Source: Pseudozyma flocculosa PF-1 | Taxonomy: Eukaryota > Basidiomycota > Ustilaginomycetes > Ustilaginales > Ustilaginaceae | Direction: 5' to 3' | Assembly: GCF_000417875.1 (NCBI RefSeq) | Contig: NW_006920889.1 | Span: 532,163 to 596,162 of the forward strand | DNA: 64,000 bases | Shown here: piece after piece, positions 13,380-64,000 of the stretch | Numbering within the stretch: position 1 is the first letter of the stretch | How the letters are laid out: each line of letters opens with the position of its first letter | Position numbers and translations under genes: made by a program | Notes under the pieces: generated by a model | Databases searched by the model: none | What the model was told of the DNA's origin: nothing | The model's input: only the letters and a program-made list of their open reading frames with translations

Positions 13380-15110
13380 ATGTCGACCACCACGCAATGG
13401 GACAACATCTTCCACGGCCTCGATACCACCGCGGGTAAGCTGCGCATGTCGTCCGGCGGCCTCGGCTGGAAGCCCATCGGCGGAGACGCCAGCGCCACCA
13501 TCACCATCCCCGCAGACCACATGCACGCCTTCCACTGGGTCCGCGTCGCACGCAACTTCCAGCTCTCCATCCACCTCAACCGCGACCGAGAGACGCCGCT
13601 CCCAAGCCAGCCCAACCCGCGCCGCTCCACCTTTGACGGCTTCCTGCGCGAAGACTACGACAAGCTCGCCGCACAGATCCGCCAGTTCTTTGGCAAGCCC
13701 CTCGAGGCCACTGAGATCTCGATGCGCGGCTGGAACTGGGGCAAGGCAGACATCAGCAACACCGACGTCCAGTTTCTCGTGCGCGACAAGCTCGCCTTTG
13801 AGCTGCCCCTCGCCCACCTCGCCAACAGCAACATCGCAAAGACCGAGGTCTCGATGGAGTTCCTCAACCCCGAGCAGCAGCAGCCCGTCGCCAACACGGG
13901 CGCATCGGCAGACGGCCGCGCCAGCTCCAGCAGCAAGTCGAGGAAGGGCAAGGGCGACCAGCTCGTCGAGATGCGCTTCTACATCCCCGGACAGGCCACA
14001 AAGGACGACGCCAGCGACGCCGCAGGAGAGGGCGCGGCGGCCGGGGCGGCGGGCGGCGCGGACGGCGCAGACGGCGACAACGAGACGGCCGCCGAGGCGT
14101 TCCACGAGGCGCTCAAGTCCAAGGCCGACATTGGCCAGGTGGCCGGCGACTCGATTGTCGTCTTCAAGGAGGTCCTCGTCCTCACGCCGCGCGGCCGCTA
14201 CGACATCGACGTCTTCCACAACTTTATCCGCCTGCGCGGCAAGACGTACGACTACAAGATCCTCCACAGCTCGATGAACAAGCTCTTCCTCCTGCCCAAG
14301 TCCGACGAGATCCACGTCATGCTCGTCATCGGCCTCGACCCGCCCATCCGCCAGGGCCAGACCCGCTACCCCTACCTCGTTCTCCAGTTCCCGCGCGAGG
14401 AGGAGATGGACGCCGAGCTCAACATCGACGACGAGACGCTCCAGACAAAGTACGACGGCAAGCTCAAGAAGCGGTACGAGGAGCCCACGTTCCGCATCGT
14501 CACCAACATGTTCAAGGTGCTCTCGGGCCAGAAGGTGTCGACGCCCGGCGAGTTTGAGTCGAGCAGCGGCCAGAGCAGCATCAAGTGCAACGTCAAGGCC
14601 ACCGACGGCAACCTGTACCCGCTGGAAAAGTCGCTCATCTGGGTTTCCAAGCAGCCCGTCTACGTGCCCTACTCGGACATCCACCAGGCCGTGCTGAGCC
14701 GCGTCGGCGGGGCGGTGGCGTCGTCCAAGACGTTTGACCTGCGCGTCATCAACAAGAGCGGGTCGGAGCACACGTTCCAGAGCATCTCGCGCGAGGAGCT
14801 CGACCGGCTCAAGGCGCACCTGGGCGAGCGCAAGGTCAAGATCAAGAACGAGATGGCCGAGGAGACGGGCGGCATTGCCGCCGCCGCCGCCGCCGGCCTG
14901 CTGAGCGACGACGACGAGGACATGGAGGACGTCGGCGGGCGGGGCGGCGGCGACGACGACGACGAGGACAGCGAGGAGGACGAGGACTTCCGCGACGAGG
15001 ACAGCGATGACGGCGGATCGCCCTCGGAGGCGTCGAGCGACGAAGACGATGGCGGCGGCGCGGGTGGTGCGAGCGATGCCGAGCGGCCACGCAAGAAGCG
15101 AAAGGATTGA
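13380..15110 (+). CDS. POB3: FACT histone-chaperone subunit Pob3
   Basis: Pob3 pairs with Spt16 to form FACT, which displaces and rebuilds H2A-H2B during transcription and replication. The frame is 576 residues without introns and starts at CCACCATG. The N-terminus carries the Pob3-N/SSRP1 PH-like domain (WDNIFHGLDTTAGKLRMSSGG, then GWKPIGG and IPADHMHAFHWVRVARNF). The structure-specific-recognition middle follows, with the conserved YDYKILHSSMNKLFLLPK segment. The Rtt106-like PH domain (KCNVKATDGNLYPLEKSLIWVSKQP) comes next. The tail from about residue 500 is acidic (EDMED, DDDDEDSEEDED) and ends in a basic ERPRKKRKD. There is no HMG box, as in other fungal Pob3 proteins, which rely on a separate HMG protein. 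The Ala/Gly-rich insertion around bases 14010-14090 is lineage-specific low complexity. Confidence 0.97.
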   Translation: MSTTTQWDNIFHGLDTTAGKLRMSSGGLGWKPIGGDASATITIPADHMHAFHWVRVARNFQLSIHLNRDRETPLPSQPNPRRSTFDGFLREDYDKLAAQIRQFFGKPLEATEISMRGWNWGKADISNTDVQFLVRDKLAFELPLAHLANSNIAKTEVSMEFLNPEQQQPVANTGASADGRASSSSKSRKGKGDQLVEMRFYIPGQATKDDASDAAGEGAAAGAAGGADGADGDNETAAEAFHEALKSKADIGQVAGDSIVVFKEVLVLTPRGRYDIDVFHNFIRLRGKTYDYKILHSSMNKLFLLPKSDEIHVMLVIGLDPPIRQGQTRYPYLVLQFPREEEMDAELNIDDETLQTKYDGKLKKRYEEPTFRIVTNMFKVLSGQKVSTPGEFESSSGQSSIKCNVKATDGNLYPLEKSLIWVSKQPVYVPYSDIHQAVLSRVGGAVASSKTFDLRVINKSGSEHTFQSISREELDRLKAHLGERKVKIKNEMAEETGGIAAAAAAGLLSDDDEDMEDVGGRGGGDDDDEDSEEDEDFRDEDSDDGGSPSEASSDEDDGGGAGGASDAERPRKKRKD

Positions 15111-16645: not shown

Positions 16646-17606
16646 GTGTGCGTCCTGGTACAGAAGGTCGGAGGGTGGCGATGACGGCGGTGATGGTCGG
16701 TAGGAGGGAAGAAGAAGGAAGAAGCAAGGTGGGCCGCCTGTCCTTTGTCCCGCGGCCCGTGCGCGCCAGGGTCCAGCTCGGGATGCCTGACAGCCGCGCC
16801 GAGCTCAGCTTTGCACATAGCCTGTCAAGAGCCGGCTCGGGACGGCATGGCGCTCAACCTCGCCCCCTCCGCTCCTCCTTTTGCCACCGCTTGCCCCGGC
16901 TTCGTCGACTCATTTGCAACCCCAGGCATCCGCACTGCCAGCCCATCGTATGACCCGTTCGTTGCGATCGGCCAGCTCGCCGATGGCACCAAGCGGCCGG
17001 AATTGGGCCTCTGGTACCTCGACCCCTTACCTCCTATCGTCCCTGGGTCATCCTTGCTCCTTGTCGTCCCACTCTGGGGATACACCAAACCGAGCTCAAT
17101 CGGACTCGCTCGTCATTGAGGCCGAGGTGAAATCTTCGTTCTGCCTCGACCTTCCGCGAGTCTGATTGGGTAGGGCATACTTTGCCCCCGACAGCTATCG
17201 CCAGCCTCAACTCACATCTCCATCGCCCCTGTCTCAGGTAGTATCGCATCCTTGTTCTAGCCGAGTTGGGTTTCCCAGAGCTCTCGAAGTCTTACAGATC
17301 CGACACAATGCCGATGTGGGTCGAGATTGCGCCTCACGATTGCCGTCGCTGCTCAGTGGTCTTGGCCCCCCCACCACCACCACCACCTTGCTGAGCTCGA
17401 CACGACGCCCGAGTGGGTCGAGTTTGCAGCTGCCGGCACGGCTCATCCCCAGGCTGAGCACCGATTCGCCCTCTCGCCGACGCCGGGCGGGCAGCAAAGA
17501 CATAAAAAGCGGGTCAAACGGCCCCTTGGCTCCCTTGAGCCTACTGACTCGCGTCTTCAACGCCCTCTCTATCTCTTGCACTCCCCGCAACCAGCAACCA
17601 GCAACC
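16646..17606. other. Divergent spacer upstream of the secreted-protein array
   Basis: About 960 bases between the kinase-like start codon and the first secreted-protein ATG. The right part, from about 17241, is duplicated upstream of the second secreted-protein gene. Confidence 0.7.
17502..17509 (+). promoter_or_regulatory. TATA-like element of secreted-protein gene 1
   Basis: ATAAAAAG lies about 100 bases before the ATG, followed by GCGGGTCAAACGGCCCCTTG, which is nearly identical upstream of gene 2. Confidence 0.6.
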
Positions 17607-18105
17607 ATGAAGCTCTCCACCCGCTCCGCCCTGCTCCTGATGGTGCTTCTTGTCGCCCAATACGCAGCAGCCGCCAACCCTTGTGCCGACGCTTACACAC
17701 CAGGCGTCAAGTGGAAGACATACGTAGCAGGCAAGCTAGGGTGGTTCAACGTCGCCATCCTCAAAGACCATTACCAGTACCAATTCGCTTCGGCGACGGA
17801 CGGAGCTAACGCCGGCAGCTGGACGCTCGAACAGAAGCTCGGCCCGAACAACATGGAAACCATCGTCCCGCTGACCTCGGCCTACAGCTGCTTCAACGTG
17901 GACCCTACATCCTCTGGGGATGCCGTCAATGCCATCAACGCGTTCGTCCTTGGCGCCACCGACCGCCTCCAGGACTACTATATCAACTGTGAGCATCGCA
18001 GCGTCAGACGCCTTCGTTCTCACGACTTCCTGGTCTGACTCGCCTCGCCCCCCGTGTACGCATGCGCACACAGACAAGGGAGCTCTTGGCCAGCTGTCCG
18101 CGTAG
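17607..18105 (+). CDS. Small secreted protein 1 (candidate effector)
   Basis: Joining 17607-17988 and 18074-18105 gives 137 residues. The signal peptide is clear (MKLSTRSALLLMVLLVAQYAAA, about 22 residues, Ala-rich cleavage site). The mature part has only two cysteines (NPCAD and YSCFNVD) and shares SWTLEQKLGP, METI and DAVNAINAFVL blocks with gene 2. The 85-base intron is phase 1 (GTGAGC donor, ACACAG acceptor), and the last exon adds YKGALGQLSA. Reading through the donor would instead add an unrelated tail, so splicing is preferred because gene 2 has the same arrangement. No enzymatic motif is visible and I do not recognise the family. Secretion, small size and tandem copies suggest a host-interaction effector, but that role is inferred. 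Confidence 0.85.
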
Positions 18106-19223
18106 CAGGCTCAACCAGGTGGCACGCAGTGCCACGTCACGGCGTGGAAAGAACAGTGCCAGTCTTGGCTGCTCTCAGCTTTCCGACTCGCCGCCTTGTG
18201 TGCCGCAAAGCAGCACACCGGAGGTCTGCCCACACCATTTCGCGACGACGAGGGTCGCTGCGCGAGCATGAGAGCGTGACCTGCCAAGAGCCGGCCGGCC
18301 GGCGCAGATCGAAATTGGCCTCGTTCCGCTCGTTTTGTATCGTCGTCACAAATCGCTGAACCCGAACTTCGTATGTATCCCGCGCAACGATTACGCTTGC
18401 TTTTCCAGCCTTGGTGCCGACCTCGAGCATTTTGCAACTGCGCAGGCGGTGCCGCCTGGACGCAGGTCTCCCGCGTGCAAGCCCACGCCCAGCCTCGGGC
18501 TAGTCGATGTCGTCTTGCTGCGCCCGACCACCGCAGCCTCGGTCTTGACTCGAGCGCGTCGGGTTGCTTTCTGCCTCGCCCCCTCCTGACCTCCGGAACG
18601 CCCCCTTCGGCCCCACAGGGGCTGCGATAGGTCCTACACTGTCCCACTCTGGATAGAACCAGTTCAAGCTCTATCAATTCCGCTCGGTTTTGGCCCACCA
18701 GAGGCGCCGTCGTCATTCTGCCCCCACCTTGCGTGATGCCGATGGTGATGTCAGCCCTGCCCCGGGCATCGATCGGCCACCTCGACTCGCGACTTCAATG
18801 AACCCCAGCCAGTATCACATCCTTGTTCTACAGCGGTAGCTGGCTGATGTGCGCCTGAGCTCACAAAGACGCTCGCATTGCTGTCACCCACATACATAGA
18901 TCAGGGAGATCCGAAACAACGCCGTCGTGGATCGAGGATGCGATTCACAACTGCCGACGCTGCTCATTACATATATTCAGATTGGTCTTGGCCGGCCCCA
19001 CCTCTCTCGGCTCGATACAGCGCCTGCGTGGGTCTAGAATGCAACAGCCGAAGCCGCTCATCCTCGGAACGAGCAGCGGATCATCCTCTCGACGACAGTT
19101 GTCGCACAGCAAACACATACATAAAGAGCGCGTCAAACGGCCCCTTGACCCCCCGAGCCTACTCATTCGCGTCCCCAGCGCCCACGCCCTCTCCACCTCT
19201 CGCACTCTCCGCAACCAGCAACC
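18106..19223. other. Spacer between secreted-protein genes 1 and 2
   Basis: The spacer holds the 3' part of duplication copy 1, then unique sequence, then from about 18811 the duplicated promoter of gene 2. No further gene is seen. Confidence 0.65.
19120..19126 (+). promoter_or_regulatory. TATA-like element of secreted-protein gene 2
   Basis: CATAAAG lies about 100 bases before the ATG and is followed by GCGCGTCAAACGGCCCCTTG, matching gene 1. Confidence 0.6.
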
Positions 19224-19752
19224 ATGAAGCTCTGCACCGGCCCCGTCCTGCTCCTGACCGTGCTGTTTGCTGTCCAGCACGCAGCAGTCGCCGACGATTG
19301 TCTCGACAGTCCCCCGCCGGGCCGCGATTGGTGGACTTTTCGGGCAGGTCGCCTCGGAAGCTTCGAGGTTTGGAGTCTCGGAAACGGCAGATACCAATTC
19401 GAATTCGAACCAAACGACGGACAGCCTGCCGACTCGACCTGGACTCTCGAACAGAAACTCGGCCCGAACGATATGGAGACCATCATCCGGCCGACCCACG
19501 CCACCAGCTGCGCCAATGTGGACTCTGAAGCTTATTCAGACGCTACCAACGCTCTCAATGCCTTCGTCCTCGCGCAGTATGACCGCCTGCAGAACTACTA
19601 CATCAGCTGTGAGCATCGCTGCGGCAAAGCGTTCCCCCCCTCCCCTCCATTCCGGGGCCAACTGACTGACATGTTTTGCTCCTCTGTACCAATGTACGTA
19701 CACACACACAGACAATGGACAACTCGGCCAGCTTGGCCTGTACAACTACTGA
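19224..19752 (+). CDS. Small secreted protein 2 (candidate effector, paralogue of 1)
   Basis: Joining 19224-19608 and 19712-19752 gives 141 residues. The signal peptide is MKLCTGPVLLLTVLFAVQHA plus AVA. The mature protein shares with gene 1 the blocks WTLEQKLGPNDMETI, the S-C-x-NVD cysteine, NAFVL and DRLQNYYI. Its own start (DDCLDSPPPGRDWW) differs strongly, so the N-terminal third diverges fastest. The phase-1 intron (GTGAGCATCG donor shared with gene 1, CACACAG acceptor) is at the same position. The last exon encodes YNGQLGQLGLYNY against YKGALGQLSA in gene 1. Function is unknown; a secreted effector is the leading inference. Confidence 0.85.
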
Positions 19753-20836
19753 TGGCATGGCACTGTGTGGCACAGCGCAGACAGGGCAGTGATGGTCTTG
19801 GCCTCGCCCGCCCCTCGGCGCTGCCAGTTTGTGCACTGCACAGCGGCATAGCGGACATCTGTCAAATCATCCCGAGACGACGAACGGTTGCCGCGCGAGC
19901 ACGAGAGCGTGTGCGCCCAGGGTGCTCCTCCATCGCACTGCCTCCATTTCTAGCCGCCCTTCTCGCCTTTCCAGCATCCCTCCCTCCTCTCTCCTCTGTT
20001 GCCGTGGGCGTGTTCAGCTGTTGCCTGACCGCTCAGCTAGAACATGCGTGTGTCACTCGCTGCAGGCGCTCGTTGATGTCGACAATCTGCCGCCTCGCCG
20101 CCGATCCGGCGTGTCCGAAGCCCTCTGGCAAGCACCACGTTCCTGGTATTTCTGCCGGCGAACTGTGACGAGTCCTCTGCCCTCTTGAGCCGTGCTGCAT
20201 GTGGGACGACCACTCGCCGGTAAGCCACTTGCAGCGCATCTTGACCTTGACGCCTGCCTCATTTCCCGCTTTGAAGTGGTCTCGGCATTTGCGCAGCCTG
20301 CTTCATGGCGACGCCGAGTGAGGAGCCCAAGGATGAAATTGGGGCGGTCGTAGGTGGGTTGCAATGCTGAGACAGCCGCCGTTCAAGGCGGAACACTCTG
20401 CTACGGTCGTCCTGCCACCGTGGCTCGCCTGCCTGGCAACCATGCCGCATCTTGCTGCCCCATACGGGTATCTTTCGTGCCCTTTGACGCCATTCTGGGC
20501 GCTGCCCCCCCCTGCAGTATCATTCTTCTTGATTCATGATTGCGCCCATGGGGCGCTCGACCCACCTCCGGACAGCGTGACTGCCGACGACCGGCAATGT
20601 CACGATTTTCGTCACTTTGCGACGTCAAACACCCATCTCGGAGGCACCACTTGCGAGGATACGAGGTGGGGCGTACGGAAATCTCGATACTTTCCCCTTC
20701 CGGCCAGCACAACCAGCAGCGACGAGGGCAAGTAAGGAAAGGCATACATAAATACACAGCTGTCCTGACTGAGCGTGCCGTCCCTTCTCGGACAAGCCTC
20801 TCCTCCCTCACCAAGCTCAAGCTCAACTCGTCAACG
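19753..20836. other. Spacer between secreted-protein genes 2 and 3
   Basis: The spacer contains the end of duplication copy 2 and then unique sequence with the promoter of gene 3. Short open frames here show no signal peptide or family resemblance. Confidence 0.65.
20747..20754 (+). promoter_or_regulatory. TATA-like element of secreted-protein gene 3
   Basis: CATAAATA lies about 85 bases before the ATG at 20837. Confidence 0.6.
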
Positions 20837-21378
20837 ATGCAGATCACCGCCGCCTTCCTGTTCCTCTCTGGCCTGCTGAGCGCCAGCAGCTGTCGCGCCT
20901 AGACGATTTCGTGGACGGTCGAGGGCAAGCCCGCCAGCGGCCTTACCGCTAGCGCCGTCGCCATTTTGGTGCCCCCCGTAGGTGGAACAGCGGCCTGGCC
21001 CTACGGCAACTTCTACGTCAACAGCCAGGGATCGCTAGACGTCTTCTGCTTCGAAGCCGTCAGGCCGATGGGTGCCATTAACTGGGCCCTGACCATCGAC
21101 GGACATTCCATCACCCGCCCGCACCCGAACATGGACTGCGCGGTCCCTGATCCGGGCTCGCAGGCCGCCCAAGCCGTCGATGTCTTCAAGAAGGGCAAAG
21201 GAGATGTCACCCGCTACGGTATTATCTGTGAGTAACCTCGATGGGCCGCCTGGTCGACCTTGACGCGGACCGCATCTCATCCGTGTCGCCGCTCCTTGCT
21301 CCTCACCTTTGTCGCCACGCAGACAACGGAAAGGGTCCCGTTACCGACTTCCGCGCTGTCAGCCCCATTCATAACTAG
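20837..21378 (+). pseudogene. Small secreted protein 3, in-frame TAG after the signal peptide
   Basis: The gene has the array's architecture. A signal peptide (MQITAAFLFLSGLLSASSC) is followed at 20900-20902 by TAG, after which the same frame stays open for 108 codons to a GTGAGT donor at 21228. A GCAG acceptor at 21322 leads, in phase 1, to a last exon starting YNGKG and ending in TAG at 21376. Downstream of the stop the family blocks are present: LDVFCFEA, INWAL and HPNMDC. A single base difference in the stop codon, intact splice sites and no other lesion mean it is either a very young pseudogene, a polymorphic null allele, a sequence error or a readthrough gene. The first Met after the stop (20966 onward) is not an ATG, so simple re-initiation there is unlikely. 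Confidence 0.75.
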
Positions 21379-21740
21379 ATACGACGTCGTGGCTCAGTAA
21401 GGATGTACGGATCCCTCGTACCTCGACTGTCACGGGTCGCTACCTTCCGACAAGCAATTCTGTCTTCTACGGCCGCAGTCTTGTTGCTACCTCATGTCGC
21501 TTCGAGCCTTGATCCGTATCTAATTTGATGTGAACACTGCTTGCCCCGCAGCATCGGGTTGCAGCGGCCCCTTCTGAACAGCTCAGCGAGCGGGGGCTAG
21601 CCACCTCATCGTATCGCTTGCCCGCCTATCGAGCTCTCTGAGCTTCGAGACTGCGACATCGCCCGACTTCGGAGCGACCCTTGCCTCCGCGTCTGGGAAG
21701 GCTTGTCCACTTTGCGCCTTGTTGTACTGGACCCGCCCTG

Positions 21741-21878
21741 ACCCACCTCGACCCACCTCGACCTACCTCGACCCACCTCGACCCACCTCGACCCACCTCG
21801 ACCCACCTCGACCCACCTCGATCCACCTCGACCCACCTCGACCCACCTCGACCCATCTCAGCCCCTCTCGACCCACCA
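21741..21878. repeat. 10-bp minisatellite, unit ACCCACCTCG
   Basis: Eleven head-to-tail units (21741-21850, two with single substitutions) are followed by degenerate units to about 21878. The length is not a multiple of three per unit, so it is not a coding repeat. Confidence 0.95.
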
Positions 21879-22236
21879 AACCCGGACAACGACATGGGCG
21901 ACGTACGATGATGGGCTGACGATCTGGCAATGATGGGCGCGGTCCATTGAGAGGTGGGTCGAGATCGTAGGCCCCTCATTACAGCCAGCCGGGCCGGGCC
22001 CTCGATCGGTGGGTCGAGGGAGACTTCGATGGCCTCCGGCCCGTTGACTCGGGAACTGTCGCCTCGAACTGGCAGCCGTCTTCCGTCCCAGCTCGAGCCC
22101 GTCGTAAGCAAGGTGGGGCTCAAACGCCATGACTGCACCTTCGGCCCCGGACATTCGGCCCGTACGCTTGTCCGATCTTTTCCTGCCCCACCGATTCGGA
22201 CGAGGGCTTCCGGTAGGCCATCGAGACCGGGAAGGG

Positions 22237-22243
22237 TATATAG
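22237..22243 (+). promoter_or_regulatory. TATA box of secreted-protein gene 4
   Basis: TATATAG lies about 130 bases before the ATG at 22370. A pair of GATTCRACC..GCAGACTCCC repeats lies between it and the start codon. Confidence 0.6.
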
Positions 22244-22369
22244 CTAGGCACCTCACGTCGTCCCCCTGCCCGCCCCGTCGATTCAACCGCGCAGACTCCC
22301 CTCCCCTGTCGATTCGACCACGCAGACTCCCACCCCTTCAAATCGCGCGACCCTATTCGTACCGCCAAC

Positions 22370-22955
22370 ATGAAGCTCTCCGCCAGCCTGTACTCAGTCG
22401 CGGCCCTGATGCTGGCCGGTGTCAGCCTCGCTCTTCCGGATGACATCGGCGAGACTCCTTACCCTAACTATCCCTCCGGTAGCGACAGTTGGACCGTCGA
22501 CGGTGGAGAGCCCGGTACGGTCCCCACCGCCATTCTCGCGACCGCCATGGGCTCGGCGGGCATGTTTCAGATCTTCACGTCGGACGCCGATGGTGACCTC
22601 CTCTGCTTCTCAACCGAGGGCGCCGCCACTTCGAGCCGCTGGCAGATGTTCGACAACAATGTTGCCATCACTCTGGGCCATCCTGACGTGGACTGCAGCC
22701 GCGCCAAGGACGATCCGAGGAGGCAAGCGGCCGTCAAGGCGATCAGCAGCAAGGACTTCAAGTCTGGCCGCTATAGCTTCCAGGGTGGGTATAAGCAAGC
22801 TCTTGGACGTGGCTAAGGAAAAACAGGGTAGCTGACATGGCGGTGCTTTCTCTGTCCTATGTCTGTTGCCCGGTGCCTCATGAACAGTCGGCAAGCAGAG
22901 GGTGTGGTTGCAGAACAACCCTTTGGCTCTGTCCAACACTCGGCCGCGCGCATGA
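22370..22955 (+). CDS. Small secreted protein 4 (candidate effector)
   Basis: Joining 22370-22784 and 22888-22955 gives 160 residues. The signal peptide is MKLSASLYSVAALMLAGVS plus LA. The mature part has two cysteines in the pattern DLLCFSTEG ... HPDVDCSRA, shared with gene 3 (VFCFEA ... HPNMDC) and gene 5 (LFCLAT ... HPIGDC). A tryptophan and a V/I-T-L strand lie between them. A 103-base phase-1 intron (GTGGGT donor, GCTGAC branch point, GAACAG acceptor) sits where the other members have theirs. The last exon encodes VGKQRVWLQNNPLALSNTR. No catalytic motif is visible. Genes 3, 4 and 5 resemble each other more than they resemble genes 1 and 2. Confidence 0.83.
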
Positions 22956-23930
22956 ACGACGCTCTTGGCGTTTTCGCGGTCCAGCGCTCGTGGAATGCTC
23001 TCCGCTCCCCACGGCGCTCAGCTGGGTAGATTGCGCGCCTGCTCGGTCCGTTCAGGCGACGGCCCATCCCGCCTCGCAGCGTGGCGTCGCGCCGCCTAGG
23101 TGACGCGCGTAGCCGCCGCAACGTTTCCCGTTTCATGTCAGTCAGCTAGTCCGAATGCCCTTTTCATCGATCGCAAGACCCCCTAGCCAGCCCTTCCAAC
23201 ATGAGTGTGACCCGACATGCTACCCCGAACGTAGCTTCTCCATGCGTCCAACTTATCCGTGTTTACGCCCTGCCCGACCGACCCTGCGGCGGCTGCAGAG
23301 TCGTTATGAGGCCCGACGCACTTCTGTGGTGTGCAGATGAAGCTATGGCGAAGCATCGCATCAGGAGAGGGCGGTTGAGTAGTATCGAGGGAGCGGCGGG
23401 CAGCGAACGGCCTCGAGGCGGCCTGGTGCTTCCAGAAGGGCAGTGCCTCACGATAGATGAATGCATCGAATAAGGTGTCTGCCCTCTCTCCCTCGGGTCT
23501 CGTCGGCTTGAGCAGCTGTTGCCACCGCTATGTATGTAGCTCGAGTGCGAGCAGGATGCGCTATCGCTGGCAAGATATGGACCTGCGCCGTTGGCGGGGC
23601 CCAATCGCTCCAGGAAGCCGTGTTGGGGTGGTTCTGCGGTGATTGCCGCTGCTTCAGCTTTGGAAGCCGGCCATTGCTGCACCGCCACATTCGGGCAGAG
23701 TCAAGATCATATTGCACCCCACCCTCCGCCCTGTTGTGCGGGGATCGGGGACCCACCGACGTACGAGGTGGGCGCGAAACGATTGACCGAAGAGTGCGGC
23801 ACAGAGGTAGTAGTAGGGGGATGGAGAGGTTTTCGTATAAGGGATCCATGGTCGCCCTCCCTCCCTTTGCGCCTCGACCGTCCGCCCTTTCCTCTCTCTC
23901 TCACCCCAGAAGACCAGACAAGCCACTAAG
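22956..23930. other. Spacer between secreted-protein genes 4 and 5
   Basis: About 975 bases with no supported gene. The last 100 bases hold the promoter of gene 5. Confidence 0.6.
23836..23841 (+). promoter_or_regulatory. TATA-like element of secreted-protein gene 5
   Basis: TATAAG lies about 90 bases before the ATG at 23931. An out-of-frame upstream ATG occurs at 23848 if transcription starts early. Confidence 0.5.
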
Positions 23931-24811
23931 ATGAAGCTCTCTCTCGCTCTTCTGCCCATCGCAGTGGTCCTGCTGGCCGGTAGCAGCTCAGCCCTCGTCC
24001 CTCCTACTCTGCCCACCGCGGATGGAAACCCGGTCCGCCAGGTCAGGTTGGTGGGCAGTCGCGAGGCCAGCGGACTCGGCACGCTCAAGCTCTACGAAAG
24101 CTATGATGCGGGCCAGCTCTTCTGCCTCGCCACTAGCCTTGGCCCCGGTTCGTGGAGGCTGCAGGACAGGGGGCAGGACGTCACGCTCCAGCCCCATCCC
24201 ATCGGCGACTGCGCCCGTGTCGGGAACGACGCCAAGAAGAAGGCGGCCTTCCAGCTTCTCCAGAGCGGCAAGTTCCGTCCCCGGGAGTTCAGCATCATCG
24301 GTGAGTGATTCGTCCACGTCGGATGCCTATGATCCTCGGGCGCGGCGGCTGATGCCCCGACCTCGTCGACTCGTTTCATCGCGCTCGAACGCTAGTGGGT
24401 GGCAGGCTGCCCTTCTACCTGGAGCCGCCGTCGCAGGGCTGAGTCCAGAGCCCGAGCCATCCTGCACCGCACTCGTCGGCCGGATCGAGATGGCGCTGGC
24501 AGGCAAGGCTAGTCACCACTCTGGAAGGCGTCGCGGGGCGCCCGTGCTCTTGTTCCGTACCAACTTCGCCATCGAATGTCGATCCCGTGTTTTCTTCTCT
24601 TTGTCGAGGCTTTGCAGGGGAGCATGGGGAGCAACTCGGGGGCAAAGCGCCGGGGGGTCTCCATCCGGCCCGACGGCGTCGGCACGTCTCGGATCCTGAG
24701 CGCGTATCTGAGCAACTCTCCGTTGGCTCTGTGCAACCACCGGAGGTCGGGCGGCCGTCCGTGGAGGCTGCAGATCAGAGCGTCGCGAGGTCACGCCCGA
24801 GCTTCGCATGA
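23931..24811 (+). CDS. Small secreted protein 5 (candidate effector), 3' end uncertain
   Basis: The first exon (23931-24300, 123 codons) is firm: signal peptide MKLSLALLPIAVVLLAGSSSA, the LFCLAT ... HPIGDC cysteine pair of genes 3 and 4, KKKAAFQLL, and a GTGAGT phase-1 donor at the conserved place. The end is not firm. The best acceptor (CTTTGCAG, ending 24617) gives a last exon 24618-24811 and 187 residues in total, with an Arg-rich tail. However, the stretch matching gene 4's last exon (SNSPLALCNHRR against QNNPLALSNTR) lies at about 24711-24746 in a different frame. The site corresponding to gene 4's acceptor reads GGCG rather than CAG here. Either the acceptor has moved and changed the tail, or a further splice or sequence error is involved. 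Confidence 0.65.
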
Positions 24812-25041
24812 TGATGGACTCGATGCCCTCGGGGTAATATCCGTGACTTTGATGATGTGCGATGCTCTCAATGGATGGATGTACATGCAGCAGCGGCAAA
24901 AGGCCTGAACGGGACACTCCCCGTCGATGTCGCATCACATGCGGCCCTGTCCGTTGGCCGTCGCATGTCGTCGCCCTTTTCTATCCACGCCCCTCCGTGA
25001 TCTCGTCGTCGTCGTCGTCGTCGTCGCGACGCGCGGCCGGC

Positions 25042-46077: not shown

Positions 46078-47199
46078 ATGCAGTTCAACGCCCTCTTCCT
46101 CATCGCGCTGGCCAGCTTCGCCACCGCGCTCCCCGAGCCCATCGCCGTCGACGGTAACACCGCCGACGCCGTCGCGCCCAGGTGGGGCAGCTACCCCTCG
46201 TGGGGCGGCAGCAGCGGCGGCAGCACCGGTGGCAGCTGGTGGGGCGGCTCGACTGGCGGCTCGACTGGCGGCTCCTCTGACGCCAGCAGTGGATCCTCGA
46301 GCGGCGGCTCGTCGTCGGCCGCTGCGTGCAACAGCTACAGTGAGTTGCCCTGCTTTCCCCCTCGTCTCCCGATCCCAACCCCATACCTCATCCTCGCTGA
46401 CCGTCCTTCCCTCCACATCTACTCCCTCTCTTGTCGCAGCTGTCATCACCACCCGCGGCACAGGCGAGGCCCAGGGCCCGTCGGCCGGTTTCCGCACCAT
46501 GAACTCGCAGCTCACCTCGTCGACCTCCGGCGGCAAGCTGTACAACACCGTCTACCCCGCCGGCTTCAGCCAGAACTCGGCCCAGGGCACCCAGGACATC
46601 GTCAACAAGGTCACCACCACCCTGCGCTCCAACCCCAACGAGTGCTTCATCCTCCAGGGCTACTCGCAGGGAGGCGCCGCCACCACAAACGCCCTCCCCA
46701 AGCTCACCGGATCGGCCTTCGACGCCGTCAAGGGCGTTTTCATCATCGGTAACCCCCTCCACAAGCGTGGCCTTGATTGCAACGTCGACTCCAACGGCGG
46801 CACCACGACTAAGAACGTCCAGGGCATCTCTGCCGGCCTCGGCAGCGGAATCCCGCAGAACTGGGTCTCGAAGACGATGGACGTTTGCGCTTTCGTGAGT
46901 CGTCCCTGGATCGCCATGTTCACCGCCCTCCATTGCACACCGGGAGGCTGGACATGCATTGGCTTCGATGGCGGTTCAACGAGGTACAAGGAGCTGAGGT
47001 ACTGACACCATCGCCACCGTGTATCGACCTCGACGCGCTCTTCTTTTTCCCCGCCTCCCTGCTGCTGCCGTGACAGGGCGACGGCGTTTGCGACACCACG
47101 AACGGTCGCGGCATCAACGGCCCCCACCTCTCCTACGGCAGCGACAGGAACGTTCAGCAGATGGGCCTCACCTTCATGAAGAAGCAGCTTGGCCGCTAA
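46078..47199 (+). CDS. Secreted cutinase-family (CE5) esterase 1
   Basis: Joining 46078-46339, 46440-46894 and 47077-47199 gives 279 residues. Introns are phase 1 (GTGAGT/TCGCAG) and phase 0 (GTGAGT/TGACAG). A signal peptide (MQFNALFLIALASFATA) precedes a Ser/Gly/Trp-rich linker (about residues 34-80). The catalytic domain starts at CNSYTVITTRGTGE. The nucleophile elbow is GYSQGG (S163), and the other triad residues are probably D241 in GDGVCD and H256 in GPHLSYG. Five cysteines (84, 156, one in LDCN, one in DVCAF, 244) allow the family's disulfides. CE5 enzymes hydrolyse cutin polyester or acetyl groups on xylan; the particular substrate cannot be read. The low-complexity linker before the catalytic domain is unusual, since most cutinases have only a short pro-region. 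Confidence 0.93.
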
Positions 47200-49280
47200 A
47201 GCCTCGAAGGCGCAACGGGCATCGAGGAGCAGGTTCGGGTCCCGTGCTTGTGCTCATGTCGAGCATCGTCGGACCGCCTGTTCCACCCTTTCCCACTGTC
47301 CCGCACCTTCCTTTCCGCTCGTCCAGCATCACTACTACTATACACCCAATCTTCTACTTTCTACTCTCTCTCTCTCTCTTCATTATTGATACCGCGCCTC
47401 GTATCCGAGCGCCGCACGGCCGCTGTCTAGCCTAGAGGATCTCCCCCCCTGGCTCCTCGCGGACGTTTTCTTCCTCCCCCCTTTGCTTCTCTCCGCTAAG
47501 GTCGTCTCGAAATCAAACTACTGCCTGGTCGTTATCGCTCTTTCCCTTCTGTCCACCCATGTGCCTGTGACTTGATGCTCGCTTTCTCGTGGCTCACTTG
47601 GCTAAATGACGCCCGGCGCGATGTCGGCTCTCAGTTCCTGGACGTTTGGACGTCGCCCGTCCTAGGTCGAGGAGGATGCAGTCGAGTTGGCCATCGTGTT
47701 GGACTGGACCCGACGAGGTGGCCACCAGAACCGCGCCCCTCGCTGCGCCGGCCATCCGTCCCTGTCCGACACGTTCCTCGGCCTTGCCCGTCCGTCCGTG
47801 GCTCCATCAGGCCATCCGTGCATTGAGGTCCGGTCTGGTTCCGCGATACCACTGTACTAGCTCTCGCTTTCGGTCAACGGGCCATCGCTAGCCCCGATGC
47901 GGATCGCATGGCCACGTATGTACGCATGGTCCCGACCCCTTCCCACCACCCCCCTTGCTCGCAGGCAGAGCCACCTACTCGTCGAGTCGTCATCCGATGG
48001 ACTCAACCGTCCGTCCTAGTCCATCTGTCTGTGTTTCAACAAGCAATGATATATGCCCGCCCGGGGACCCATACTGCGCGCTAAACCGAGCTAGACTGAG
48101 CCCCGTGGCCGTTAGCCACCTCCCCTTCCCCCTTTAAGCCCCCTGCTGCGCCCCGCCGTGACCGGCGCAGCCCGGCCCGGTGCGGCGTGACAACCATGCG
48201 AACACTACTGAAGCTCTGACTCGCCCGCCATCTTGACGGCGCGCAAGGTGTGCCGGCCTGTGCTTCGTGAACGATGACGGCGGCCAACGTCAGCCAGCTG
48301 AGCTAGGGATGATGCACCTCGCCTCAGCTCAACGGCTCGTCCATCGAGCAACCGGAAGCCATCCCGCCCTCGCCCGCCGAGCCCGTTCGGAAGGTGCCCG
48401 AATCGCCAGGCGGGCTTTCCAATTGAATTCATTCAGGATTCTTGGTGCCCCCAGGATTTTTGGTTGGCGCCTCGCCGCCAAGGGCTTGTCATGCCTGCCG
48501 CTCCGCCCCCTCCGCATGTCCGCCGGCAGCGGAACGGTCGTTGGGTGTTGCAGCGGCGCGCGCGTTGTACGTGTCAACGGCGCTATGTATGTACATACGC
48601 CCTCGCTACGCCACACGCGGCTGGGCGCAGTCATGGATGGACATGGACAGATCGCGCGTGATCATCGACTGACACTCGCCCGTGTCACCGTCGCCCAACT
48701 ACCCGGCCGCGCCTGGCACCTCTGATCCCAACCCTCCGCCCTGCGCTCCATGCCCACCCGTTCCGAGGGTCGTGGGCCGGTCCTCCTCGCCCCTCTTTCC
48801 TCTCTCTCGCGCTCGGCCCCACCGCGCGGCGCCTGGGACTAAGAGCCACTTCGACCGACTCTGCTCAGCCTGACCGAATCGATGGCCTGGCCCTGTGTCA
48901 CGACCTCCAGTGCAAATTGACACGGCGTTGCCATCGCTGCGCGTCCCCGTCTGCGCCCGACATCGAGGCTAGTAAGTCGGGGGCGAATATCAGGACAGCC
49001 TCAGCCTGCCATCATCCTTGCGCCGTCTCCCCATCCTCCCATCAGCTAATCAGCCCTCCGTCCCCTCCCCCTGCCCCTTCAGACGCCCTCTCTCCCAATC
49101 GTTCTTCATCCTCTTGCTGGCAAGACCTCGAACGCGCGTTTAACCCCTCGCCCTTCACTCCCCTCCTTCACTCCCCTCCTTCATCCCCTGTTCGATTTCT
49201 CTTCCTACCTCTTCGCGTCTGCGACCACCACCAAGTACTCTTTCCAGCTTCGTCTCGCCTCCTCGATCGACGCCCTTGCG
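47200..49280. other. Spacer between the two cutinase genes
   Basis: About 2.1 kb, starting with the C/T-rich 3' flank of cutinase 1 (a TC run near 47365-47380). No gene is supported. The final 200 bases are the promoter and C/T-rich leader of cutinase 2. Confidence 0.6.
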
Positions 49281-51032
49281 ATGCAGGTCGCCGTCCTTTT
49301 TGCCATCGCCCTGGCCGGCCTGGCCAGCGCGCACCCCAACCCCAAAGCCCTCATGATGGGCGGCGGGATGCCCAAGATGCCCGGTATGGGCGGAGGCTTG
49401 ATGGGCGGCGGCATGCCCAAGATGCCCGGTATGGGCGGAGGCATGATGGGCGGCGGGATGCCCAGCTTCGGCGGTCTCGGCGGCGGCGGAGGCGGTATGC
49501 CCGGCCTCGGCGGCCTCGGAGGCGGCGGTGGCGGTATGCCCAGCTTTGGTGGCCTCGGCGGCGGCGGCGGCGGCGGCATGCCCGGCCTCGGTGGTCTCGG
49601 AGGCGGTGGCGGCGGTATGCCCAGCTTTGGTGGCCTGGGCGGCGGCGGTGGCGGCGGCATGCCCAGCTTCGGTGGTCTCGGAGGCGGTTCCAGCGGNNNN
49701 NNNNNNNNNNNNNNNNNNNNNNNNNNNNNNNNNNNNNNNNNNNNNNNNNNNNNNNNNNNNNNNNNNNNNNNNNNNNNNNNNNNNNNNNNNNNNNNNNNNN
49801 NNNNNNNNNNNNNNNGGTGGGCGGCATGCCCAGCTTCGGTGGTCTCGGAGGCGGTTCCAGCGGCGGCGGCGCCTCGTGGTCGGTTCCTCCGATGCGAGGC
49901 GGCGGCCGCCCGGCGGTGGTCCGCTGCCGGTGGCGGCTCTGGTGGGGCTACAGGCACCGGTGGCGCAGCGGGTGGTGCTGCCCTGGTGGTGGTAGCGCCG
50001 CCGGCGGTGCTGGTGCTCCCACGGGCGCCGCATGCAACAGCTACAGTGAGTCTACCCGTCCAGACAGAGCGCGTCCTTCAACGTCACGCCCGACTCCCCA
50101 TCCCTCTCCGACGCGGACCCCTCTCATCCCTGCCCCCTCCCCGGCCCAACCGTTGACCAACGCTCTGCCACCTCTCCCCCCAACCCGCCCACCTTCACAC
50201 CGTCTCCTCCGCCCCCTTCTGCCTCTGCCTCCGACCCCGGCTGCAGCCATCATCACGACGCGCGGTACGGGCGAGATGCAAGGCCCCTCTGCGGGCTTCC
50301 GCACCATGAACTCGCAGATCACGTCGGCCGTGCCCGGCGGAAAGCTGTACAACACCATGTACGCCGCCGGATTCGACCAGAACTCGGCGCAGGGCACGCA
50401 GGATATCGTCAACAACGTGACCAACACCATCCGCCAGAACCCCAACGAGTGCTTCATCCTCCAGGGCTACTCGCAGGGCGCCGCCGCCACGACCAACGCC
50501 CTCGCCAAGATCACGGGCGCAGGCTTTGACGCCGTCAAAGGGGTCGTGATGGTGGGAAATCCCCTCCACCGCAAAGGCCTCGCCTGCAACGTCGATGACA
50601 AGGGAGGTACCTCGACGATGAACGTGCAAGGAATGATGGCCATGATGGGCGGTGGTGTCCCCCAGAACTGGGTCTCGAAGACGTTGGATATCTGCGCCTA
50701 CGTGAGTCTTGCCGCATCGCCAAGTGCCCCGTGGAAGGCTGCACATGGCACGACAGACGGCACAAGGAGATTGCTATCGATTCGAGATGCGAATGACGGA
50801 AGAGATGTGCTGACACCGCCATCCCGCCGTGACGATATCCACCTCGACGCGTCTCGCTCTTTTCCTTCCCGCCCTCGTCTGCGCCTCTGCACCTCCGTGT
50901 GGACGACAGGGCGACGGCGTGTGCGACACCTCGCACGGTATGGGCATCAACGCCGCGCACATGTCGTACGGCGGCAGCCAGACGGTGCAAGCGATGGGCC
51001 TCAAGTTTATGCAGAAGCAGCTGGGCCACTGA
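49281..51032 (+). CDS. Secreted cutinase-family (CE5) esterase 2 with Gly/Met repeat linker; interrupted by gap
   Basis: The ATG at 49281 opens a signal peptide (MQVAVLFAIALAGLASA). A repetitive linker follows: GGMPKMPGMGGG units, then MPSFGGLGGGG and MPGLGGLGGGG units, running into the assembly gap at 49697-49815. After the gap, exon 1 ends at CNSY (50045). Exons 50247-50701 (455 bases) and 50910-51032 (123 bases) have exactly the lengths and phases of cutinase 1. The domain is intact: TIITTRGTGE, GYSQGAAATTNA nucleophile elbow, GDGVCDTS and AAHMSYGG. Across 49816-50032 the glycine-rich reading appears to switch frame twice, probably from sequence errors next to the gap. The long Gly/Met linker could act as a flexible spacer or wall-anchoring segment; that is inference. 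The two genes are clearly a tandem duplicate pair. Confidence 0.88.
49697..49815. other. Assembly gap (119 N)
   Basis: The run of N lies inside a near-perfect coding repeat: the same GGAGGCGGTTCCAGCGG ends the sequence on the left and recurs at about 49847-49863 on the right. The true length and frame across it are unknown. Confidence 0.99.
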
Positions 51033-52164
51033 GCGCCCTGGCGGCGCGCGGCGTGAGCCGGCTTGCCAGGGCTGCCGGCTTTGGCCCTCATCTCTGCGGC
51101 ACGGCGCGGCGCGGCGCGGCGCCAACCGACTGGACCGGACCGACGTCGATGCGATCGTTCACTGCGATCCATCTGTTGCTGTCGGTCGCCTCTGGTCGGT
51201 TGCGCCCGGATACACGGCGGTGCCCGCCCTCTCCCACTCGCTCACCTCGCCTCGTTTCGCCTCGTCTCTATCTCGTCTCGTCTCACCTGGCCCCAGTGTC
51301 ACCCCTGGGCCAACTTCACTCTGCAGCTGCGCCGCGGTTGCCGTGGTCCCATCTCGTTCGCTCCCTTGCGCGCTCCTCCCGCCTCTCCGATCCATCCCTT
51401 GCTGCTCCAGCCACGCAGCACGGGTGAACCACGTCCCTCCTTTCTCCTCCCCCTCGATCTGTCTATGCGTCGATGCCCTCGATGGCAGGCCGTCTGAGCG
51501 GGCCGATGCAGGCAGACCAAGGCGAGGCGCCGTCGCGGTCGCCCCGTCGCACCGCACCGCACCGCACCATCCTTTGACCGAATGCGAATGTAGCACTACA
51601 CCCGACCCTCCCTCTTTGTCGTTGATCGTTGATCGAACTCTTTCTCGTTGATCGTTGATCGAGCCCAGAGCTGTCCTTGACCCTTGTTCTTGTCCCGGTC
51701 TGAACGCATCCACCAGGCGCGGTGAGCCATGGCATCCTTGGTCGTTGTGATGCGCGCGTGCTGGTGGCCACGGCCGTGGTGGCGTCTGTTGCGGGTCTGT
51801 TTTTGCCTGCGGGGGCTGTCGATGTCGCGCCAGCCAGGCCCCGCTGGCTGCTGCTGCTGGCTGCAGGGTTCAGCGCCCGTCTCGGGGAAAAGGCAGGGAG
51901 CGAGACAGGGGCCTGGCCTGTCGCCCACGTACGCCCTTCCAGGCCCTCGTGCCAGCGCGCGGGCGAAAAGGCCGTGTGTTGGTCTTGCAGTTGCTCCACA
52001 TTTCACCTCCTCGCACTCGACCACCACCACCGCCGCCATCGACTCTTCCGCAGCCCCTCCGCGCCGCCACCGCGCCGTCACCACATCCGTCACCCGCTAG
52101 CTCGTCTGTCCGCCTCTCTGTCTCTTCGCCTCTCGCCTCCCCGCCACCCCGCCACCCCGCCGCC
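51033..52164. other. Spacer between cutinase 2 and the myosin light-chain gene
   Basis: About 1.1 kb with short direct repeats (GGCGC near 51100-51120, CTCGTCTCGTCTC near 51260, and GTTGATCGTTGATCGA twice near 51620-51661). No gene is supported. Confidence 0.6.
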
Positions 52165-62976: not shown

Positions 62977-62990
62977 CCCCTTGTAACCCT
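62977..62990. repeat. Subtelomeric inverted repeat, left arm
   Basis: CCCCTTGTAACCCT is the exact reverse complement of AGGGTTACAAGGGG at 63885-63898. A third copy, AGGGTTACAAGG, lies at 63478-63489. Confidence 0.85.
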
Positions 62991-63106
62991 AACCCTAAAC
63001 CCCAGCCCCAACCCTAACCCCAGCCCTAACCCTAACCCTAGCCCCAGCCCTAACCTTAACCCGAGCCCCAACCCTAACCCTGGCCCCAGCCCTAGACCTA
63101 ACACAG
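62984..63106. repeat. Degenerate interstitial telomere-like tract (CCCTAA orientation)
   Basis: About twenty units of CCCTAA mixed with CCCCAGC, CCTTAAC and similar variants. The C-rich strand is on top, opposite to the terminal TTAGGG repeats, so the tract points away from the chromosome end. Confidence 0.9.
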
Positions 63107-63110
63107 CCAA

Positions 63111-63160
63111 AACCCATCGCTCCGCTTTAGGGTTTCACCCATCGCTCGGCTTTAGGGTGT
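63111..63160. repeat. Two copies of a 24-26-bp repeat ending in TTTAGGGT
   Basis: ACCCATCGCTCSGCTTTAGG occurs twice in tandem next to the telomere-like tract, each ending in a telomere-like TTTAGGGT. Confidence 0.85.
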
Positions 63161-63489
63161 AACGGTCGACCTGGCGGTGCACAGAAGATTGTCCAAGGGG
63201 GGGAGAAGTCTCTGCGCGTCGGAGGGCGATCGCTTCGGTGCTTCCGTCAGAGGCGCGAGAGAGGTTCGGGAACGGCGGGTTGATACCGAGGGCAACTGTG
63301 AGCACCGTTGGCAGGCGTCCACGGTCAAGGATGACTACGGAAGTGAGCTGGCGTGGTGATCTGTCGATAGACGTCGCAATTGCTAGACAACGGTAGCCTC
63401 GGGCTCTCACGTCAATGGAAGACGAGCAAGCGGTGAGGACTGGTATTGACTAGACTGGATGAGGGTGTCGCGCGGCTAGGGTTACAAGG

Positions 63490-63884
63490 TGATGTGGGCA
63501 GGGTTAGGGGCAGACCGATTCTTGACAAACTATTTTCATATGATAGATAGGCCACTTATACCCTACCATGCAAAGTATGGGGGTCAGCGGATCAGCGGTC
63601 ATGGAGATCGGAGCCCTCAAAGTTGGAGCGTTTTTGACAAAAAGTTGTCAAAACCCAAACATTTTTGCACCAAAAGGGGCGTAATGGAGGGTATAAATGA
63701 GGCATACACAGAGGCAGGGCTTTCCCTGGAAGGTCAGGGAGTGCGGGTGGAAAAAGTGGTTTTCGGGCCAAATCCTAAGGGGGGACCCTTGGGACCCCCT
63801 GGCTGACGACAAAATCTCCACCGATCTGTCTGAAACTTTTACGGTAGAGGGAGAGGGGCACAGCCAGTGGATAGGGTTAGGGTG
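63490..63884. other. Less GC-rich subtelomeric block
   Basis: This block is visibly richer in A/T than the rest of the window (ACTATTTTCATATGATAGA near 63530 and ACAAAAAGTTGTCAAAA near 63636). It contains a 105-codon plus-strand frame beginning at a GTG, without recognisable domains. It may be a transposon or subtelomeric-repeat remnant, or noncoding. Confidence 0.6.
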
Positions 63885-63898
63885 AGGGTTACAAGGGG
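63885..63898. repeat. Subtelomeric inverted repeat, right arm
   Basis: AGGGTTACAAGGGG is the exact partner of 62977-62990, bounding a 0.9-kb segment. Confidence 0.85.
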
Positions 63899-63977
63899 GG
63901 GCCACGCAGGGTTAGGGTTGGGATTTTCTTCCCGCAAATGATTCCATCTTACAAGGTGTTCTGTGGGAAAAACATGG

Positions 63978-64000
63978 TAGGGCTAGGGTTAGGGTTAGGG
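63978..64000 (+). repeat. Telomeric TTAGGG repeats at the window edge
   Basis: TAGGGC followed by TAGGGT-type units ends exactly at the window edge, with the G-rich strand running 5' to 3' outward as at a right chromosome end. More telomere-like fragments lie at 63870-63890 and 63911-63928. Only about four units are present, so the array is cut by the window or assembly. Confidence 0.85.

What the first reader, a model, noticed from the sequence alone, without database searches (positions are those of the whole stretch)
17241..24900. Five-gene array of small, fast-diverging secreted proteins
Five consecutive plus-strand genes (starts 17607, 19224, 20837, 22370, 23931) each have a signal peptide, an MKL or MQI start, one long exon of 123-138 codons, few cysteines, a TATA-like element 85-130 bases upstream and one intron. 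They fall into two subgroups: genes 1-2 (SWTLEQKLGP, METI, S-C-x-NVD) and genes 3-5 ([VL][FL]C[FL] ... HP..DC). The subgroups share only the layout, a tryptophan-centred core and the splice position. I recognise no described family. In smut fungi such arrays commonly encode host-colonisation effectors, and a subtelomeric setting fits.
Basis: partly seen in the sequence, partly recalled or inferred. Interest (0 to 1): 0.85.

Follow-up and report, generated by a model that had tools for sequence, protein, structure and literature searches.

The report
Orphan secreted-protein family in biocontrol yeast
The five-gene array is real, but one of its genes is broken and the array is part of a larger family of fast-changing secreted proteins, seen so far only in Pseudozyma flocculosa, a yeast known for attacking powdery mildew, so these proteins may be tools of a fungus-against-fungus contest.

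Summary
The array is real with one correction. Four of the five genes (g1, g2, g4, g5) are intact; g3 has an in-frame stop at codon 22, just after its signal peptide. The genome is Pseudozyma flocculosa PF-1: g1 and g2 equal PFL1_05781 and PFL1_05782, splice included. This fungus is a biocontrol antagonist of powdery mildews. Six more genes of the same design lie on the same contig, in two clusters about 395-447 kb away, making 11. The design is an MK start, hydrophobic N-terminus, two cysteines, a tryptophan core, and a phase-1 intron before a 10-24-codon last exon; the same scan finds 10, 0 and 0 such genes in phases 1, 0 and 2. Leave-one-out profiles recover 11 of 11; leaving whole clusters out is weaker. 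A word-limited search of 5.8 billion proteins gave only this species. Both predicted folds are strand-rich; the best PDB match, not significant, is the ToxA-like effector SIX8. I read it as an orphan effector-like family, perhaps used at the mildew-leaf interface. Function is inferred; published expression tables could test it.

The parts
17607..17988 (+). g1 exon 1 (PFL1_05781), hydrophobic N-terminus plus core, 127 codons and first base of split codon
   Evidence: spliced g1 equals P0124 (NCBI PFL1_05781) letter for letter
17989..18073 (+). g1 phase-1 intron, 85 nt
18074..18105 (+). g1 exon 2, tail YKGALGQLSA
19224..19608 (+). g2 exon 1 (PFL1_05782), 128 codons
   Evidence: spliced g2 equals P0122 (NCBI PFL1_05782)
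19609..19711 (+). g2 phase-1 intron, 103 nt
19712..19752 (+). g2 exon 2
20837..21227 (+). g3 exon 1, interrupted by an in-frame TAG at 20900-20902 (codon 22); treated as two separate pieces
21228..21322 (+). g3 predicted phase-1 intron, 95 nt
21323..21378 (+). g3 exon 2
21740..21880 (.). tandem decamer (ctcgacccac) between g3 and g4; the same 10-mer (either strand) also lies upstream of g1, g3 and g4
22370..22784 (+). g4 exon 1, 138 codons
22785..22887 (+). g4 predicted phase-1 intron, 103 nt
22888..22955 (+). g4 exon 2
23931..24300 (+). g5 exon 1, 123 codons
24301..24395 (+). g5 predicted phase-1 intron, 95 nt
24396..24442 (+). g5 exon 2

Best explanation
The array is the contig-end part of an orphan, rapidly diverging family of small secreted proteins in the mildew-antagonist yeast Pseudozyma flocculosa. 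Shown: 11 loci (10 intact, one interrupted) in three clusters on one contig, sharing an MK-type start, two cysteines, a tryptophan core, a predicted phase-1 intron and a short last exon; no relative found elsewhere with the searches made. Inferred: one ancestral gene spread by duplication into clusters, and the copies then diverged in sequence while keeping a small strand-rich fold pinned by a disulfide, the pattern described for 'sequence-unrelated, structurally similar' effectors. Inferred with less certainty: the proteins are secreted when the yeast meets a powdery mildew colony on a leaf and bind proteins of the mildew or of the plant at that interface (no enzyme family matched), with copies tuned to different targets. 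Confidence: family real about 0.9; restricted to this lineage about 0.75; effector-type function in the three-partner interaction about 0.4. The figure below is for the whole statement.
For: Family: leave-one-out profiles rank 11 of 11 members above every non-family segment among 3,421 six-frame segments, and again 11 of 11 with the first 20 residues of the profile members removed, E 1.2e-6 to 0.13. g3-g5 against the cluster at 102-106 kb, mature parts only: hhalign E 6e-6, probability 85%. The intron design occurs 10/0/0 times in phases 1/0/2. The three annotated family proteins that were found (PFL1_05781, 05782, 05670) have exactly the predicted splice. Orphan status: a profile search of 5.77e9 proteins (1,129 candidates scored) gave 4 hits, three annotated as P. 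flocculosa PF-1 and one the g4 frame itself; no Pfam row passes its cut-off; one PDB row at E 0.46. Fast divergence: g1-g2 dN 0.39, dS 0.70, ratio 0.56 (bootstrap 0.35-0.87), against 0.28 (0.16-0.46) for two cutinase genes of similar dS (0.65) in the same window. Fold: both models (pLDDT 83.4 and 78.1) have a strand meander, then a helix, then a strand; the top two of 350,542 PDB chains for g2 are the fungal effectors SIX8 (E 0.024, prob 0.97) and ToxA (E 0.28, prob 0.38). Setting: P. flocculosa is reported to have about 200 unique candidate effectors, and a group of ten is strongly expressed in contact with mildew and nearly silent in culture (PMC6079639, passages); its effector Pf2826 is reported as needed for full biocontrol and was seen around mildew haustoria and spores (PMC10210494, passages).
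Confidence: 0.43

Rival explanations
1. Decaying relics of a plant-infection effector family from the smut ancestor of P. flocculosa, under relaxed selection and no longer used.
For: g3 is interrupted. The lineage is reported to have lost key smut effectors and plant pathogenicity of the smut type (PMC6079639, passages). Clustered secreted families (mig1-related, Tin2-like) are described in smuts (PMC4081819, passages; PMC9816061, passages). g1-g2 dN/dS 0.56 is higher than the cutinase control 0.28.
Against: 10 of 11 loci keep open frames with usable splice sites. No smut protein is among the 4 hits, although that search reaches only relatives sharing short exact words. The ratio is still below 1.
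Confidence: 0.25
2. Directly antifungal secreted proteins (killer-toxin-like or membrane-active) that kill mildew or competing microbes.
For: The producing species antagonises a fungus (PMC6079639, passages). Small, secreted proteins with a possible disulfide in many variants would fit.
Against: Only two cysteines each, whereas many antifungal killer proteins are cysteine-rich (recalled). No killer toxin by name among the 50 rows shown of 756 in the viral structure library for g2 (several rows are unnamed), nor in the one PDB sequence row. Immunity of the producer was not examined.
Confidence: 0.15
3. Ordinary surface or wall proteins of the yeast (adhesion, wall protection, ligand binding) with no role in interactions.
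For: FnIII-type and carbohydrate-binding-module folds are among the weak matches, as expected for binding modules.
Against: Such proteins are usually conserved in relatives (recalled); one search found none. Tandem, contig-end, fast-diverging copies would be unusual. Wall anchors were not searched for.
Confidence: 0.17

Closest known systems
Tin2-like effectors of the Ustilago maydis chromosome 19 cluster ('SUSS' effectors; PMC9816061, passages read)
   Same: Species-specific family of sequence-dissimilar secreted proteins in genomic clusters, explained there by duplication, divergence and sub-cluster expansion from one ancestor, with further members on other chromosomes.
   Different: U. maydis is a plant pathogen. 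No Tin2 sequence or model was compared here, so a shared fold is untested. The family here is recognised by a conserved phase-1 intron and lies, as far as searched, on one contig.
mig1-related secreted proteins of Ustilago and Sporisorium (PMC4081819, passages read)
   Same: Clustered family of smut secreted effectors with copy-number change between species.
   Different: No such protein among the hits; no Mig1 sequence was compared directly.
ToxA-like effectors (ToxA, AvrL567, Avr2, SIX7, SIX8; PMC10942635, passages read)
   Same: Small secreted fungal beta-sandwich proteins; SIX8 and ToxA are the top two Foldseek rows for g2.
Pf2826 and the other candidate effectors of P. flocculosa (PMC10210494, PMC6079639, passages read)
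   Same: Same fungus, secreted, reported as unique to the species.
   Different: Pf2826 is 454 residues with LVIVD repeats, so not of this design; pf02382 is described as carrying a lipocalin domain. Their sequences were not compared here.

Membership tests
The P. flocculosa family described here (two-Cys, phase-1-intron) | Profile built without the gene finds it above all non-family segments | tested here: met
   11 of 11 loci; when whole clusters are left out, 8 of 11 still have no better non-family segment (not g2, b153, b152)
The P. flocculosa family described here (two-Cys, phase-1-intron) | One phase-1 intron before a 10-24-codon last exon | tested here: met
   11 of 11 loci including g3; for the four genes found by the scan (a106, b155, b153, b152) phase 1 was a search criterion; three of the 11 agree with public gene models
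ToxA-like effectors | Beta-sandwich fold superposing on ToxA, Avr2 or SIX8 | tested here: inconclusive
ToxA-like effectors | Solved structure or demonstrated effector activity | not testable with these tools
   No structure or assay
Tin2-like (SUSS) effectors of U. maydis | Structural match to the Tin2 fold | not tested
   No Tin2 sequence or model was compared
Tin2-like (SUSS) effectors of U. maydis | Genomic clusters of diverged secreted paralogs | tested here: met
   Three clusters on C21; a feature of the kind, not proof of membership
mig1-related effectors | Detectable sequence similarity to Mig1 proteins | tested here: inconclusive
   No such protein among the 4 hits of the profile search, which needs shared 5-residue words
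Any Pfam family | Score above the curated cut-off | tested here: not met
   0 of 5 exon-1 proteins or pieces from the window reach a cut-off; the six outside genes were not scanned

The most novel reading that the evidence does not exclude
A biocontrol yeast related to plant-infecting smuts carries its own expanding, fast-evolving effector family of ToxA-like beta-sandwich proteins, kept in contig-end and internal clusters and directed at another fungus (powdery mildew) or its haustorial interface. This would be an effector arms race between two fungi that uses the same kind of fold and genome layout as plant pathogens use against plants.
Probability: 0.25. Interest if true: 0.82.

Novelty: new member of a known kind. 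Interest (0 to 1): 0.52.

Why it matters
Effectors are mostly studied between microbes and plants. P. flocculosa is a reported case of effectors in a fungus-fungus-plant interaction, with about 200 candidates unique to it (PMC6079639, passages). Showing that at least 11 loci are one family with a recognisable gene signature (two cysteines, tryptophan core, phase-1 intron before a short last exon) gives a way to group orphans that plain sequence search separates; in the passages read I saw no such grouping. It also gives a testable prediction about which genes may act together on mildew.
Full report
What is there. The window is the right end (532163-596162) of a 596,162-base contig, C21, of a 23.0 Mb, 33-contig genome; its last bases are a short run of TTAGGG-type repeat. 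Splice prediction gives one GT-AG intron in each (85, 103, 95, 103 and 95 nt), always after the first base of a codon and followed by a last exon of 10-22 codons. g1 and g2 resemble each other (55% over the matched stretch, E 5e-31). g4 finds g5 (E 5.5e-5) and the downstream piece of g3 (E 0.0011). g3 carries an in-frame TAG at codon 22, directly after the hydrophobic N-terminus; its downstream frame and predicted splice sites are otherwise open, so the lesion could be recent, a sequencing error, or an allele. I did not read through it.

Which organism. A profile of the family found four proteins among 5.77 billion (1,129 candidates scored): the g4 frame itself and three annotated proteins of Pseudozyma flocculosa PF-1. 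P0124 (PFL1_05781), P0122 (PFL1_05782) and P0123 (PFL1_05670) equal my spliced g1, g2 and b152 letter for letter. Why g4, g5 and the other outside genes did not appear as annotated proteins is not known: they may be unannotated or may have missed the word filter. NCBI taxonomy puts the species in Ustilaginaceae; the window's POB3 protein is closest to Thecaphora frezii (80%) and Testicularia cyperi (81%) among named hits.

A larger family. A very weak hit of g5 at C21:102575-102862 (E 2.7) proved to be a gene of the same design (a102: MKL start, two cysteines, phase-1 intron, tail VNG...). It found a neighbour, a104 (E 4e-5; frame, splice). A scan for the design over C21:1-200000 and C21:522163-596162 added a106, b155, b153 and b152. 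Of 11 protein searches of the genome, every match at E 0.001 or better lay on C21. These searches see only fairly close relatives; 322,162 bases of C21 were not held, about 26 kb of the held part reads N, and the other 32 contigs were not scanned for the design, so 11 is a lower bound.

Is it one family? Leave-one-out profiles place 11 of 11 members above all non-family segments of 3,421, and also with the first 20 residues of the profile members removed. Withholding a whole cluster is harder: g5 E 7e-7, g4 8e-6, b155 6e-5, a102 8e-5, a104 0.002, g1 0.009, g3 piece 0.085, a106 0.23, b153 0.36, g2 1.0, b152 6.6; the last three of these with b153, g2 and b152 beaten by 3, 1 and 18 non-family segments. 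Profiles of g3-5 alone or of the five window loci alone do not reach the whole family. Profile comparison with signal peptides kept gives E 5.5e-10 for g3-5 against the six outside genes, 2.1e-4 for g1-2 against the six, and 0.0048 for g1-2 against g3-5. Mature-only comparison links g3-5 to the 102-106 kb cluster firmly (E 6e-6, probability 85%), but the 152-155 kb cluster to g3-5 (E 0.014, 3%) and to the 102-106 kb cluster (E 0.0074, 5%) poorly, g1-2 to the other nine weakly (E 6.6e-4, 27%) and g1-2 to g3-5 not convincingly (E 0.037, 1.4%). The phase control (10 hits in phase 1; none in phases 0 or 2 with MK start and two cysteines) supports common descent. For a106, b155, b153 and b152 phase 1 was a condition of the scan, but the five array genes, a102 and a104 were found without it: 7 of 7 in phase 1. 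In g1-2 the first cysteine sits near the mature N-terminus instead of in the third strand region (alignment; models), so the disulfide, if formed, would differ between subgroups (inference).

Rate. g1-g2: dS 0.70, dN 0.39, ratio 0.56 (95% bootstrap 0.35-0.87). Two cutinase-like genes at 46499 and 50306 of the same window (133 codons), with similar dS (0.65), have dN 0.18, ratio 0.28 (0.16-0.46). So the proteins change about twice as fast at similar dS, without a ratio above one, and the intervals overlap. The more diverged pairs g4-g5 (0.72) and a102-a104 (1.06, without the a104 last exon) are too uncertain to use.

How it most likely works. P. flocculosa is described as drawing nutrients from barley through powdery mildew before the haustoria collapse, with ten of its unique candidate effectors strongly expressed on mildew and almost silent in culture (PMC6079639, passages). 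One effector, Pf2826, is reported as needed for full biocontrol, was found around haustoria and spores, and interacted with barley PR proteins and a mildew effector candidate (PMC10210494, passages). Orphan, clustered, secreted, fast-changing proteins without an enzyme family in such a fungus are best explained as binding-type effectors of this interaction. That step is inference: no expression or binding result for these 11 genes was seen, and Pf2826 itself (454 residues, LVIVD repeats) is not of this design.

Relation to known systems. The closest described kind is the sequence-unrelated, structurally similar effector cluster, such as the Tin2-like genes of U. maydis, where an array of seemingly unrelated proteins was argued to descend from a single ancestor (PMC9816061, passages). 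The mig1-related clusters are another smut example (PMC4081819, passages). Membership in either was not shown. I call this a new family of a known kind, in an unusual host biology. On checking, two odds were lowered slightly (family real 0.93 to 0.9; lineage-restricted 0.8 to 0.75; whole statement 0.45 to 0.43), because the weak cluster-to-cluster comparisons had been left out of the first version.

Noticed in passing
C21:102862(-), 104159(+), 106315(-), 155198(-), 153690(-), 152261(-) (L028, L033): Six further genes of the same design in two clusters on the same contig.
   Followed up: yes
window 46078-51427: Two neighbouring cutinase-like genes (PF01083 for the first; the second recognised by its similarity to it), used here as a rate control; a run of N lies at 49697-49815 in the second gene's region.
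   Followed up: partly
window 62980-64000: Degenerate CCCTAA-type repeats inside the last kilobase and a short TTAGGG-type run at the contig end.
   Followed up: no
window 21740-21880; also 17316, 17413, 20556, 21954, 22009: The 10-mer GTGGGTCGAG (either strand) occurs 14 times in the window, all inside the array, nine in a tandem block; one copy lies 258 bp upstream of family gene b152.
   Followed up: partly
window 13380-15107: POB3 is closer to Thecaphora frezii and Testicularia cyperi (80-81%) than to Sporisorium scitamineum (73%) in one search listing, although the taxonomy places the species in Ustilaginaceae. One gene only.
   Followed up: no
P0001 (g4 frame): The g4 frame is listed with a longest contig of 473,869 bases, different from C21's 596,162, so another assembly or isolate with g4 may exist.
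   Followed up: no
C21 near 152 kb: PFL1_05670 (b152) is numbered close to pf05678, one of two metalloprotease genes with the highest expression among lytic enzymes on mildew in PMC6079639; a possible shared region, judged by gene number only.
   Followed up: no
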